Shown: positions 35,077 to 49,506 of the stretch, one piece after another
Numbering within the stretch: the first letter of the stretch is position 1
Layout of the letters: each line of letters opens with the position of its first letter
Notes under the pieces: model-generated
What the model saw: only the letters and a program-made list of their open reading frames with translations
Databases searched by the model: none
Told to the model about the DNA's origin: nothing
NCBI RefSeq assembly: GCF_038396675.1
Contig: NC_088921.1
Location: forward strand, 35,901,001 to 35,965,000
DNA: 64,000 nucleotides
Direction of reading: 5' to 3'
Source of the DNA: Hydra vulgaris
Taxonomy: Eukaryota; Cnidaria; Hydrozoa; Anthoathecata; Hydridae
Made by a program: the position numbers and the translations under genes

Positions 35077-35160
35077 TACACTCTCAAAAATAATGTAGAC
35101 AAATTTATCTACAAATTATGTAGACACGGATAAATCTACAGTTTTGTAGCATTAGTTTTG
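35077..35160 (+). repeat. candidate left terminus of a large DNA transposon
   Basis: TACACTCTCAAAAATAATGT begins a 24-bp sequence (35077-35100) that matches the inverse of 49483-49506 at 22 positions. It is followed by spaced CTACA/TGTAG motifs ('atctacaaattatgtagac', 'aatctacag', 'ttgtagc'), the same style as the right side. No target duplication is evident. Confidence 0.5.
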
Positions 35161-35421
35161 TGACGCGTTTAGTAAAGTCTTATAATATGCTTTAAAAATT
35201 AGTAACCAGACTAGTCTATGGATAGACTTACAACACAGACATAGACAATTCTGTATGTTGTAATGGACACAACAAATGTTTAATTTTTTGTCCTTGTTGT
35301 GTCTATCAAATTTTTGATGGTGTCCTAAGATTGCTCAGTTAAAAAATAATTTTCACTTTATAAGTCTACAAAGCATAATTTTTTGTCTATTTGGTGTCTA
35401 TGATTTTGTCTAAATTTACTT

Positions 35422-35486
35422 GATTTCATAAAACCAGAAATATTGATTTTTGCCAATAAAATCAATATTTCTGGTTTTATGAAATC
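35422..35486. repeat. 29-bp perfect inverted repeat
   Basis: The arm GATTTCATAAAACCAGAAAT... (35422-35450) and its exact complement (35458-35486) enclose a 7-nt loop. Confidence 0.9.
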
Positions 35487-36499
35487 CCTTAGAAACAAAA
35501 AAACTCCTTGATCACATATTTTTAAAATAATTTTATTGAAGGTGATAAAGATTTTAGTGACTAAGGAAAATTTTTTAAATGATAAACTTACCTTCAACTT
35601 TTTTGAAGTAATCCCAAACTGGAGAGGGCATTTTAAAAATAAATTTTCACGCACATTCACTTAGAATTGAAAAACAACTGAACTGAGTAATTAATGAACT
35701 TCAATTGAGCACAAAATAGTCCATTTTGAGGTTTTTAAATAGACATTAACTTTTTAATCAACAGCACACGCTAGACAAAAAATTAAAAAATGAACTTCTG
35801 TTAGAAAAATTGTATTTTTAATTTTGTGCTCGTTTTCAGTTTTTGAAACGATGCTACAGTGAAAATTTAATTACTCGTTATAAGTCCAAATTATATATTA
35901 AATAGATCTTCTATACCTCATTAAAAAATCGAGATTGTTCATTTAGTGTCCGTTTTTAAAATGATTGTCTAGAAAGACAAACACAATATGACAATGTCAA
36001 AAATCTTTGTATATAAATGCAATGATATTTCCCTGTTGTTGTATACTTAAAACAATACTTACTTTTTATATAGGCCATAAATTACTTTAAAATAATTTTA
36101 CACATTCGTAGTTTCAGCAGATTTAATACATTTTTGATCATTTTTATTAGTATATCAAGGGTAGTATGTTTCTCTTTAAAGTCAGTTTTCTTACAATTTT
36201 ACTTTAGCTTTTGGCCAAAATCAACTCGACAGCGGTTTTAGAAACCGACTGTATGTTTGCATTAAATAAAAAATTTGTTGTAAAATGTTAACGCTTATTT
36301 CACTGTGGTACATCGACTCATTGCAAACTAATTAAAAAATAGATTTCGGCACACTCTAAATTAAAAAAAGAGTTTTATCTCTGGATTAAAATAGCCGACG
36401 AACCCAGCAAAATAGTCAAACTAGCACAGGGTTTAAAAATTTTTTTGTATTTTCGTTGTATTTTATATTTATCTGTTTTAAAAGTTAAAATAAAAACAA

Positions 36500-36530
36500 G
36501 TCGAAGTTTCAAAAACTTTGAAACTTCGAC
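36500..36530. repeat. 14-bp hairpin
   Basis: GTCGAAGTTTCAAA, a 3-nt loop, then TTTGAAACTTCGAC. Confidence 0.85.
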
Positions 36531-37011
36531 AAACTTTTTATATATACCAATATAAAATATTCACACCCTGTTCTATTAACCCCCCCTCCCCTAAAGTTGC
36601 TTTTTCATTTGAAGTTTGATAATTGCAAATTTTTGATGAGCCGGATAATCCCATGAAATTGATAATTATAAAATTTTGCTCCACATTCTCACTAAATAAA
36701 TGAAAAAAATGAAATAAAAAAGATCGAAACCACTTGACGATGGAGTCTTATCTTGCTTCTTCATTTTTAAAGCAAGCATGTTTGTTTTTTGCATAATTTA
36801 AATTTTAAAAATAAATTCTAGTGTTTTCAAATAATTTTAAATAAAAATAGTAAAATAAACACACTCAAATTGAAACAAAAGTGAAAAAAATACTAAAGTT
36901 AACAGAAACATTTGTATTAATCTTTATCAATAAATTACAAGAATGTTTTTCTTTAATGTAATTTAAAAAATTTTTTAAAATTAATATAAGTAATTTAAAA
37001 TAGTTTTTTAA

Positions 37012-38150
37012 TTAATCAACTGAAATGATATCATTTGTATCAACTGAAGTCTCTAGATTAAAATCAAAAGCAATATCATCTTCATCAATCTCATCTAGTC
37101 TCTGAAAAAATCTTATTTCATTTTTTGAAGTTTGATAATTACAAAATCCTCTTGTTTCAACTATGTACTTTGGAAGTAACTCAAGGACTATAACAAATTC
37201 CCATCGATGTAAAACAAGAGCTTTCAATACTGAGTCTTTACTGGATGGAGGAGGCTCAGCATACATATTTCTACCACCATTATTTCGTGGATCAAGAAAG
37301 TACGCGAACCCCATGGATGGTGTATGCACAAATTCCCATTGGTGTAAAACAAGAGCTTTCAATACTGAGTCTTCACTCCATATTTGCATTAAATTAACAA
37401 ATCCTAAAAAAACTTAAGAAAGTAAACAAGTATCTGATTCCAGTTTACCTATTAGTTTCGATAATGGTTTCATAACATTAATAAAACGTTGACAATCTTC
37501 CCAAAAAAAATTGTCTTGTATAATATTTATATACTCTAACTTTTTTGGGGATAAAGATATGCGCGTAAAGGCACCTGAGTTGACTAAATTCAAATGGATT
37601 AACTTGTTTTCAAGATTACGAGCAACTGATGTATGATGGCTAAAAGAATTATCAACATATTCTTTTATTGAACATTTTTCACCATTGAATGCATCCTTAT
37701 AGAGACGCCCACTAATGCATTTACTAGATGGAGGCTTATATGCAGGCCTAAGATTTGCATGATGTTGCTTCCAAGCAGAAGAATCAGCTAATGCAAAAGG
37801 TACTCCTGTATGGAAAAACACCCTTGCATATGATTTATCAATCTTTTCAATGTCATCTTTGTTTATAGTGTCAAAGTATGAATTTAGCATAGTTCTTTTA
37901 GAAGATTGCCTAGAAACTGAACCTTCAGAGATTTGTGAGGCCATTTTCATTGCTTCTTGTTTCAACTAAAACACTTTGAAGCTCTCTTTTTATTTTTTGA
38001 AGCACAATTTAACATTGTCAGATGCTTTTTCACATCCCCTTATATGCAGCATTCATCTGAAAGTTGAGCGTGCTGTAATTTGTTTATCACAATATTTGCA
38101 ATAAATTTTTCTTGTTGAACCTTTTCCAAAAAAAGAGACATGCTTTTAAA
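37012..38150 (-). pseudogene. hAT-family transposase remnant
   Basis: On the minus strand it begins with a BED-finger-like piece (YCKYCDKQITARSTF, HIRGCEK; about 38105-38040) broken by stops. A 183-residue open frame (37965-37414) follows with the hAT signature RVFFHTGVPFALADSSAWKQ and LRPAYKPPSSKCISGRLY, then FWEDCQRFINVMKPLSKLIG and LESD. A second frame (37389-37012) has WEFVHTPSMGFAYFLDPRNN, the hAT segment near the third catalytic region. The hATC dimerisation block is not found. Residues DSVLKALVLHxWEFV occur twice because of a 44-bp direct repeat (37199-37242 and 37333-37376). hAT transposases cut and paste with 8-bp duplications. No paired termini were found here. Confidence 0.82.
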
Positions 38151-47825: not shown

Positions 47826-47889
47826 TTCCTAAAAATAATAAATTATCCAACCTAATAATAATTTATCCAACCTAGCCAAGTTTTGCAAA

Positions 47890-48050
47890 AAAACCTGTAA
47901 AATAGTGTTATTTTTCCAAAAACTAAACGAAAATTTGGAAACCTTGTGGAACTTTTAAACTTAATTCATATATGAATTAAGTTAAAAGTTCCACAAGATT
48001 TCCAAATTTTCGTTTAGTTTTTGGGAAAATGTCACTATTTTACAGGTTTT
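47890..48050. repeat. 161-bp imperfect palindrome
   Basis: Arms starting 'aacctgtaaaatagtg' are inverted around 47970/47971 (ttaattcata|tatgaattaa), with a few mismatches and small gaps. It lies in the last intron, just beyond the LINE 5' end. Confidence 0.88.
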
Positions 48051-48916
48051 ACCACTCTAAAACCGCTTAAAAAATTTTTACAAGTTATATATAACTTGTA
48101 AAAGTTAGTGATTTTCTTTTTTATAGGATTTTAATACGGTTTTATTAAACACCCTTTCAAATATTTTTATTATAACTTTGTACTAACACTCTTATGCCGC
48201 ATCTAATCTGATATAACTTAGTTTTGAATTTGACAGAATTGCTGTATAAGACCAAACATTAGTGCAGTAGCTTCATTCGGTTCCACGTAATTACCTAAAT
48301 TAATGTAGAAATTCAAATAGACTAGACACAACTATAGAGGGAATATAGTAAGTTATCCTAAACGCTAGGGTTTAAATTAAGCCGATTATTACTTTTTTCT
48401 AGAATATGACAGTTGATGCTGCTGTTGAAGTCTTAAATCTAGATGGGTGCAAGCAGCCATTAATTTTTATACTAGGATCAGCAATGTATATCAAAGTTGA
48501 TTTGAATGCTATATTGGTTAAAGATGCCGATTCTTTTCCCGAGATGGTATTACTTCTTTTGGCAACGTTTTACGTTTTTGACCTGAAGTATCCGGATGAG
48601 TTGCGAGTGCTATTTTCGTTACTTGAAAAAATTTGTGGCATTCCAGCAATAATACATAGTTCAATTGCAAATGAACCTTGAGTAAACTTATATATAACCA
48701 AAATAATATTTGTTAAGCTTTTTGACAACAATATTAATTTTCTATGGTATTTTCTATGTTTATTTGACTTTGGCGTTTTTTAATTCCGAATAAATTTTCT
48801 ATAGTTTGGTTATAAAAAAATTAAAATTATAGATTTTATTGAAAAGTATAAGTAGTTTTATAGAGTTTTTTTAGTTTAACTAGCATGCAAGTTCCTAATA
48901 GGAACTTGGATGCTAC

Positions 48917-49133
48917 TATATATATATATATATATATATATATATATATATATATATATATATATATATATATATATATATATATATATATATATATATA
49001 TATATATATATATATATATATATATATATATATATATATATATATACATATATATATATATATATATATATATATATATATATATATATATATATATATA
49101 TATATATATATATATATATATATATATATATAT
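48917..49133. repeat. (TA)n microsatellite
   Basis: About 216 bp of TA with one 'tacata' interruption near 49046. Confidence 0.97.
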
Positions 49134-49224
49134 GTGCTAATATATATATTAAAGTGTTTATGATAAAATTAATATTAAATCTAAATGAATCGGAAAAACT
49201 CCAAAAAGCTACAATAAATATAGA

Positions 49225-49506
49225 TTTATTATAAGACACTACAGGAAATGTAGCGTTTTTGTCTACATTATGTACGCGAGTGAAACATCAACATTCAATG
49301 TAGGTAAATAAAAAACTACAAAATTGTAGATAAAAAGGCAACACTATTTGTAGTTATAATGCTACATTAATGTAGATTTTTCCGCCTTTACAATTAATGT
49401 AGACTTTTTATCTACGTAAATGTACGTGAGTGAAACGTCTACATTTAATGTACGCAAAATTGCTACATTTTGTAGATAAAAAGACTACACTATTTTTGAG
49501 AGTGTA
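49225..49506 (-). repeat. CTACA/TGTAG-motif subterminal repeats and candidate right terminus
   Basis: Contains about a dozen 'ctaca' or 'tgtag' words. It includes two direct copies of 'tgtacgYgagtgaaacRtcW' (49272 and 49430) about 158 bp apart, each followed by 'gtagataaaaaggc/gac'. The outer 24 bp (49483-49506) is the inverse of 35077-35100. This is the architecture of a DNA transposon end. Confidence 0.6.

What the first reader, a model, noticed from the sequence alone, without database searches (positions are those of the whole stretch)
35077..49506. Candidate large nested DNA transposon carrying a zinc finger-DDE-SAM gene
A 24-bp sequence at 35077 and its inverse at 49483-49506 agree at 22 positions, and similarity continues a further 20 bp or so ('tttatctacaaa..tgtag'). 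Both ends, and the segment just before the gene at 41.6-41.7 kb, carry reiterated CTACA/TGTAG words. The only unexplained multi-exon gene (41.9-48.7 kb) lies between them. The hAT remnant, the P-like element and the LINE all look like later insertions. If correct, the unit is a long transposon whose protein combines C2H2 fingers, a DDE-like core and a SAM-like module. What is seen: ends, motifs, exons. What is inferred: that they form one mobile unit.
Basis: partly seen in the sequence, partly recalled or inferred. Interest (0 to 1): 0.85.

Follow-up and report, generated by a model that had tools for sequence, protein, structure and literature searches.

The report
Two-gene CMC transposon in Hydra
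This stretch is one dead, insertion-riddled copy of a DNA transposon that carries two genes, a zinc-finger transposase of the RAG1-like CACTA group and a second SAM-like protein, and relatives with the same pair of genes lie elsewhere in the same genome.

Summary
The 24-bp termini at 35077 and 49506 match at 22 of 24 positions. In the host genome (911.5 Mb, 15 contigs, most likely Hydra vulgaris AEP) the same ends form six inverted pairs: five enclose the same genes, one is a short deleted copy. All six have identical 2-bp flanks (TA five times, CA once). The joined flanks of one copy match many copies of an uninterrupted LINE-like repeat, so a 2-bp target duplication is supported by empty sites. 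A 6.7-kb sister copy shows which parts of the window's 14.4 kb are later insertions.

One part of the reading is wrong. There is no single zinc finger-DDE-SAM protein but two genes: a C2H2-DDE transposase with the C(2)C/H(3)H pattern of the CMC clade, and a separate gene starting with a SAM-like domain. They look fused here because about 0.38 kb is missing between them. Both genes are broken in this copy.

The pair is conserved: 26 of 53 genomic hits of the SAM gene's last exon lie downstream of a transposase hit on the same strand (random mean 0.28). My searches found no report of a SAM-like second gene in such elements.

The parts
35077..35078 (.). left copy of the 2-bp target-site duplication (TA)
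   Evidence: TA/TA flanks here; 6 of 6 paired copies have identical 2-bp flanks, 5 TA and 1 CA; empty sites for the C6 copy
35079..35199 (+). 5' terminal inverted repeat (CACTCTCAAAAATAATGTAGAC) and subterminal TGTAG/CTACA repeats
   Evidence: 96.7% identical to sister copy C13c 560-681
35200..41656 (.). block of later insertions, represented by 36 bp in sister copy C13c
   Evidence: C13c 681->718 corresponds to window 35199->41657
38638..41469 (.). P-like element inserted in that block: 28-bp perfect TIRs, 9-bp duplication TATACTAAC at 38629-38637 and 41470-41478, TNP-like domain at 40181-40354 (-)
   Evidence: (TIRs, coordinates), (PF21789, E 4.4e-12)
41657..41852 (+). 5' internal region with subterminal repeats, next to the transposase gene
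   Evidence: aligned with C13c from 718 on at 92%; word bin 41501
41853..43088 (+). transposase, first coding part: two C2H2 fingers (41886-41948, 41982-42053) and first catalytic D (42845); broken by a stop at 42577 and two frame changes
   Evidence: homologous in C1, C6, C13a, C13c, C13s
43089..43313 (+). intron of the transposase gene (GT..AG)
   Evidence: coding resumes at 43314
43314..44459 (+). transposase, second coding part: second D (43355), CxxC (43415-43426), HxxxH (44057-44071), E (44130); stops at 43352, 43502, 43802 and a frame change before the E; last part of the gene missing
   Evidence: C13c 3543-3926 absent from the window at 44452/44453
44556..46605 (+). SAM-like second gene, all known exons but the last (44556-44616, 44927-45164, 45246-45352, 45442-45538, 45646-45759, 45852-46059, 46209-46377, 46438-46605); SAM-like domain in the first two; no start codon here where four sister copies have ATG; frame change in the second exon
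46697..47853 (-). LINE insertion in the last intron of the SAM-like gene (reverse transcriptase 46764-47828)
   Evidence: RVT_1 E 1.1e-15; absent from C13c
48403..48681 (+). last exon of the SAM-like gene, open, ends in TGA
49117..49504 (-). 3' subterminal TGTAG/CTACA array and 3' terminal inverted repeat (reversed: CACTCTCAAAAATAGTGTAGTC)
   Evidence: 96.4% identical to C13c 6873-7261
49505..49506 (.). right copy of the 2-bp target-site duplication (TA)

Best explanation
It is an inactive, nested copy of a cut-and-paste DNA transposon of the CMC clade (EnSpm/CACTA-Mirage-Chapaev). SHOWN: ends CACTCTC...GAGAGTG, a 2-bp target duplication (mostly TA), subterminal TGTAG/CTACA arrays, and two genes in fixed order, a C2H2-DDE transposase and a multi-exon gene that starts with a SAM-like domain; several homologous copies; later insertions by a P-like element and a LINE. 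INFERRED: the transposase binds the ends through its fingers and/or the repeat arrays, cuts with a RAG1-like DDE site held by the C(2)C/H(3)H zinc site, and inserts mostly at TA. The SAM-like protein is a helper, comparable in position to the ORF2 of plant CACTA elements, perhaps joining the two ends by SAM-SAM contacts. This copy could make neither protein and could only have been moved in trans.
For: Six inverted TIR pairs with equal 2-bp flanks. Five of the six, the window included, plus the single-ended copy C13s, carry both genes in the same order and orientation. The joined flanks of the C6 copy cross the junction in 39 of 41 listed genomic rows at 81-88% identity; without a gap at the junction in 2 of 3 checked and in one stretch of the window itself. 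Sister copy C13c, 6.7 kb end to end, is collinear, its six blocks 87-97% identical. D...D...C(2)C...H(3)H...E with spacings close to mouse RAG1 (RAG1 residues); 11 of 20,000 shuffles of the peptide show such an arrangement. In 14 related ORFs the second D is invariant in 10 of 10 that cover it, both C in 11 of 11, both H in 12 of 12, E in 10 of 11. Two C2H2 fingers (PDB best hits are zinc-finger proteins). Separate transposase stop and SAM-gene ATG in other copies and in L050. A family 47% identical in the transposase core (L050) has TIRs CACGCTTAAAAATAGTGT, TA/TA flanks and both genes. 26 of 53 SAM-gene hits lie downstream of a transposase hit, 20 of them outside this family.
Against: No Pfam transposase model matches: Transposase_21 hit none of 14 related ORFs at E up to 0.1, and a profile of them found 19 PDB sequences at E up to 10, 18 of them zinc-finger proteins and none RAG1 or Transib. 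So the CMC placement rests on motifs, ends and TSD. One of the 11 ORFs covering the E has K there (L036); three residues could serve as first D in the window peptide, and the LFYDG motif was found in 7 of 14 ORFs (several start downstream of it, but the 755-aa L048 lacks it). The two structure predictions were useless (pLDDT 34 and 43). The SAM assignment is weak: SAM_2 E 0.0013, 19.3 bits under a cut-off of 20.5, in L050 only; for the window family the best Pfam row is DUF3173 (E 0.0012 and 0.017, also under its cut-off). C6 and the window have no ATG where four sister copies begin the second gene. Between copies of this family mean dN/dS is 0.77 (transposase) and 0.88 (SAM gene), near neutral. 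25 of 53 SAM-gene hits had no listed transposase hit within 15 kb (the transposase list held 150 of 659 candidates), and 2 had one on the other strand only. Helper role and repeat binding were not tested.
Confidence: 0.93

Rival explanations
1. One gene codes for a single fused protein with C2H2 fingers, a DDE core and a SAM module.
For: In the window the transposase frame ends at 44462 and the SAM-like exon begins less than 100 bp later, in a phase that would allow splicing. C6, like the window, has no ATG at the start of the second gene.
Against: In C1, C13a and C13c the transposase region runs on into a tail that the window lacks and then meets a stop; in C1, C13a, C13c and C13s the SAM gene opens with ATG just before the first SAM-like helix; in L050 a 745-aa transposase frame ends before a SAM frame that opens with its own ATG. 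The window lacks 382 bp between them against C13c.
Confidence: 0.05
2. The SAM-like gene is a host gene, or another element's gene, caught by chance between the ends of the transposon.
For: CACTA elements can capture host genes (PMC4158355, section 3); 25 of 53 SAM-gene hits have no listed transposase partner.
Against: The six closest hits of the two genes are at the same six places. 26 of 53 SAM hits lie downstream of a transposase hit against 0.28 expected for any neighbourhood; 20 of the 26 are outside this family, at 25-44% identity. All four more distant loci fetched (L049-L052) show SAM-gene exons 3' of the transposase, weakly in L052 (E 8e-5 and 1e-4).
Confidence: 0.06
3. The inverted ends belong to short MITEs or unrelated repeats that only happen to flank the genes.
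For: One of six pairs (C13b, 3.66 kb) carries only a fragment of the first transposase exon, and one unpaired end (C11) has neither gene in the 9.9 kb fetched.
Against: Five of six pairs flank both genes; in C13c the left end is about 0.35 kb from the transposase start; empty site and TSD fit the whole unit.
Confidence: 0.01

Closest known systems
EnSpm/CACTA superfamily (En/Spm of plants)
   Same: CAC..GTG ends, subterminal repeats (plant arrays recalled), DDE with C(2)C and H(3-4)H motifs (PMC12730594, passages and section 16 read), two genes between the TIRs: a transposase and an ORF2 (PMC4158355, section 3 read).
   Different: Ends CACTC, not CACTA; 2-bp, not 3-bp duplication; no Pfam Transposase_21 match; second gene starts with a SAM-like domain, which I did not find described for plant ORF2 in the parts read.
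TRC elements of animals (SmTRC1) and Hydra Spongebob/EnSpm-4N1_HM
   Same: Animal relatives of CACTA with 2-bp duplications (PMC1636069, abstract, section 6 and passages; PMC4298943, passages).
   Different: They begin with CCC; SmTRC1 carries Transposase_21 (the transposase of Spongebob was not resolved in that paper); no second SAM gene is mentioned in the parts read.
ESTA and Mirage (TA duplications), Chapaev (CAC..GTG, 3-4 bp)
   Same: Same CMCT clade motifs; ESTA duplicates TA (PMC12730594); Chapaev ends with CAC..GTG (PMC4079192, passages). Mirage TA recalled.
   Different: ESTA in that paper is fungal and carries a TET/JBP gene; Chapaev has 3-4-bp duplications. No sequence relationship was tested.
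RAG1/Transib
   Same: Spacing D-D 95 (RAG1 108), D-C 20 (19), C-C 3 (3), C-H 211 (207), H-H 4 (5), H-E 15 in the joined peptide or about 20 by nucleotides (20), D-E 253-258 (254).
   Different: No detectable sequence similarity by profile; N-terminal C2H2 fingers; 2-bp rather than 5-bp duplication (5 bp recalled).

Membership tests
CMC / CMCT clade | DDE triad with C(2)C and H(3-4)H between second D and E | tested here: met
   (one of 11 relatives has K for E); definition from PMC12730594 section 16
CMC / CMCT clade | 5'-CA..TG-3' ends and 2-5-bp TSD | tested here: met
   CACTCTC..GAGAGTG, 2 bp in 6 of 6 pairs, empty sites
CMC / CMCT clade | transposase clusters with CMC in a phylogeny or by fold | tested here: inconclusive
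   no CMC reference sequences at hand; models of pLDDT 34 and 43; profile found no CMC/RAG1 structure
EnSpm/CACTA sensu stricto | CACTA at the ends | tested here: not met
   CACTC at both ends of the six paired copies
EnSpm/CACTA sensu stricto | 3-bp target-site duplication | tested here: not met
   2 bp
EnSpm/CACTA sensu stricto | Pfam Transposase_21 | tested here: not met
   0 of 14 ORFs at E 0.1; none for the window pieces
EnSpm/CACTA sensu stricto | two genes, transposase plus ORF2 | tested here: met
TRC | CCC at the ends | tested here: not met
Chapaev | 3-4-bp target-site duplication | tested here: not met
SAM domain | match to a SAM profile above its curated cut-off | tested here: inconclusive
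   SAM_2 19.3 bits, cut-off 20.5, in L050 only; the two window-family copies scanned match SAM_Ribosomal_mS41 at E 0.04-0.06, behind DUF3173 at 0.001-0.02. PDB hits of the spliced domain at E up to 1: SAM chains 3 of 3 and 2 of 2; of the second exon alone at E up to 10: 4 SAM chains of 8

The most novel reading that the evidence does not exclude
Animal CMC transposons have an ancient two-gene plan in which the second gene is a SAM-domain protein that polymerises on the subterminal repeats to bring the ends together: a helper-assisted transposition system that parallels, or shares ancestry with, the TNPA/TNPD pair of plant En/Spm. It may also be the source of host genes annotated as SAMD3-like (recalled, not tested).
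Probability: 0.25. Interest if true: 0.75.

Novelty: new variant of a known kind. Interest (0 to 1): 0.5.

Why it matters
If the second protein is needed for movement, animals have a helper-assisted CMC system in which a plant question (what ORF2 does at the ends) can be tested again in an independent lineage. It also warns that such SAM-like gene models in animal genomes may be transposon genes.

Tried and rejected
Rejected: a single fused protein; chance capture of a host SAM gene; MITE-only ends; strict EnSpm/CACTA, TRC or Chapaev membership (see membership test).

Led nowhere: viral and prokaryote scans for the ends or the genes, phage records, tRNA and Rfam, two AlphaFold2 runs without alignments, Pfam and PDB for the window's own catalytic pieces. 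A search for TSD-flanked TIR pairs in the 35.1-38.6 kb block found none, so that block is only partly explained. dN/dS between the six copies was near neutral. My first gene model put a 32-nt intron in the SAM gene; sister copies show a frame change there and no intron. The random control used a guessed length for C10 (53.0 Mb; 52.6 Mb by difference), which bears on one of 53 hits. The tolerances of the shuffle test were set after seeing the sequence. My first alignment of relatives read loci on the minus strand in the wrong orientation; it was redone. Two exon junctions of the SAM gene (E6/E7, E8/E9) are out of phase in this copy and unexplained.

Papers on a SAM gene in such elements: one search found no paper with 'sterile alpha motif', 'EnSpm' and 'transposase'; the parts listed (20 of 28, 20 of 20, 20 of 682, 15 of 187, 12 of 746, 12 of 12 and 10 of 39) showed none by title or start of abstract. 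Two listed papers hold both EnSpm and SAM-domain words (PMC11760641, PMC7070046); the passages are unrelated. Repbase could not be searched.
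Full report
OBSERVATION. The termini are as described: 24-mers at 35077 and 49506 agree at 22 of 24 positions in inverse orientation, more than chance gives (best of 100 Markov windows 20 of 24; two 20-bp matches against 0.04 expected). CTACA/TGTAG words peak in just the three places named.

HOST GENOME TEST. The window lies in a genome of 911,502,276 bases in 15 contigs. This fits the Hydra vulgaris AEP haplotype (912 Mb, 15 chromosomes; PMC12220107, passages read); the identification is my inference. 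With up to one mismatch the 20-bp end CACTCTCAAAAATANTGTAG occurs 18 times, against 2 for the reversed control. Twelve of the 18 form six inverted pairs: C1 (7.8 kb), the window (14.4 kb), C6 (14.9 kb), C13a (15.1 kb), C13b (3.7 kb), C13c (6.7 kb). Five of the six pairs carry both genes; C13b keeps only a 21-residue match to the first transposase exon. Of the six unpaired ends, C13s has both genes, C4 (L017) a transposase remnant, C8 (L049) a transposase 71% identical and one SAM-gene exon, C11 (L018) nothing in the 9.9 kb fetched, and two on C14 were not fetched.

TARGET DUPLICATION. All six pairs have identical 2-bp flanks: TA five times, CA once (C13c). Equal 2-bp flanks occur at 9% of random pairs of places in the window. 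The flanks of C6 lie in a LINE-like repeat: they resemble window 20119-20415 (68%), next to an ORF with a reverse-transcriptase-like stretch (motif recalled). Joined with one TA, the 300 bases give 41 genomic rows, 39 of which cross the junction, at 81-88% identity; the other two are the C6 flank itself and a 54-base piece. In the three loci checked the alignment crosses the junction without a gap in two and with a one-base gap in the third.

NESTING. Sister copy C13c aligns to the window in order: 560-681 with 35078-35199, 718-3543 with 41657-44453, 3926-6199 with 44452-46696, 6189-6334 with 47854-48000, 6333-6903 with 48413-48947, 6873-7261 with 49117-49504. Thus 35200-41656 and 46697-47853 are later insertions, 48001-48412 is extra in the window or lost in C13c, and the window lacks 382 bp at 44452/44453. 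The P-like element (38638-41469) has perfect 28-bp TIRs, a 9-bp duplication TATACTAAC and a TNP-like domain (PF21789). The reverse-transcriptase ORF 46764-47828 (RVT_1) is the LINE.

TRANSPOSASE. The first exon has two classic C2H2 fingers, two of only three such patterns in six frames of the window; the best PDB matches of that stretch are zinc-finger proteins (E 0.008). Downstream come D (42845), D (43355), CxxC, HxxxH and E (44130). Spacings are close to mouse RAG1 D600, D708, C727/C730, H937/H942, E962 (PMC4914335, passages). [quoted passage not shown] In 20,000 shuffles 11 showed such an arrangement; two other D residues of the peptide would also fit as the first D, but the chosen one lies in an LFYDG motif found in 7 of 14 relatives, the 755-aa L048 being a full-length exception. 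In the aligned relatives the second D is invariant in 10 of 10 that cover it, both C in 11 of 11, both H in 12 of 12, and E in 10 of 11 (L036 has K). In this copy the gene has four in-frame stops (42577, 43352, 43502, 43802), three frame changes (about 42160, 42770, 44100-44130) and a lost 3' part. Pfam gives no transposase for the window or for 14 relatives.

SECOND GENE. In sister copies C1, C13a, C13c and C13s the next gene opens with its own ATG a few codons before the KLCEVLKV helix, and the transposase region meets a stop before it in C1, C13a and C13c. C6 and the window have no ATG there. The more distant L050 has a 745-aa transposase frame with its own stop and a SAM frame opening with ATG. 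Its first 60 or so residues reach Pfam SAM_2 with E 0.0013, just under the curated cut-off; the window-family domain matches DUF3173 best, also under its cut-off. The only PDB matches of the window-family domain at E up to 1 are SAM domains. So it is SAM-like, not proven SAM. Each exon of the gene is open in the window in one frame, but the second exon carries a frame change against the sisters and two junctions are out of phase.

THE PAIR IS OLD. The genome holds at least 150 transposase matches (150 of 659 candidates scored) and 53 matches to the last exon of the second gene. Of the 53, 28 lie within 15 kb of a listed transposase match, 26 of them downstream on the same strand; random placement gives a mean of 0.28 and a maximum of 4 in 1000 trials. 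Six of the 26 are this family; the other 20 have 25-44% identity in that exon. Family L050 (47% identical over the transposase core) spans 444-9796 with TIRs CACGCTTAAAAATAGTGT and TA/TA flanks, so ends, duplication and gene pair go together in at least two families. Between copies of the window's own family dN/dS is near neutral for both genes: most changes probably came after insertion.

MECHANISM. Cut-and-paste by a RAG1-like DDE transposase, mostly at TA dinucleotides, is the best reading; ends, duplication and empty sites are shown, catalysis is inferred from motifs. The role of the SAM-like protein is a guess by position and analogy with plant CACTA elements, which carry a transposase and an ORF2 that supports excision and transposition in some families (PMC4158355, section 3).

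NAME AND NOVELTY. I file it in the CMC clade by motifs and ends. Strict EnSpm/CACTA, TRC and Chapaev membership each fail a tested feature. EnSpm elements are known in Hydra (PMC4298943, PMC12220107, passages). My paper searches (most listings seen in part) showed no report of a SAM-like gene in such elements, but Repbase and subscription papers were out of reach.

Noticed in passing
21310-22239 and 53940-54917 (+): Two paralogous rhodopsin-family receptor ORFs (7tm_1, E 2e-23 and 3e-27) in a duplicated block, 86% identical; the FAK.S..NP.IY stretch looks opsin-like (motif recalled).
   Followed up: partly
1-3778: Satellite array of about 130 copies of a 29-bp unit, 97% alike, with strong C-over-G skew.
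   Followed up: no
38620-41590: The P-like element appears to sit inside a short palindromic MITE-like repeat; its duplication is 9 bp (TATACTAAC), where 8 bp would be usual for P elements (recalled).
   Followed up: partly
40333-40568, 47890-48050, 41469-41582: Palindromes of 114-236 bp with arms 94-98% alike, MITE-like.
   Followed up: no
11184-11897 (+): Mariner-like transposase fragment (Transposase_1, E 1.4e-18).
   Followed up: no
56810-58244 (-), 60928-61407 (-), 61295-61915 (+): Long ORFs without a Pfam family at E 0.01, apart from one weak C2H2 finger at 61820, that look like further transposon genes.
   Followed up: no
L050:444-9796: A related 9.35-kb element with a 745-aa open transposase frame and a second gene; L027, L028 and L029 are 97%, 90% and 96% identical in the transposase to L026, which is the same locus.
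   Followed up: partly
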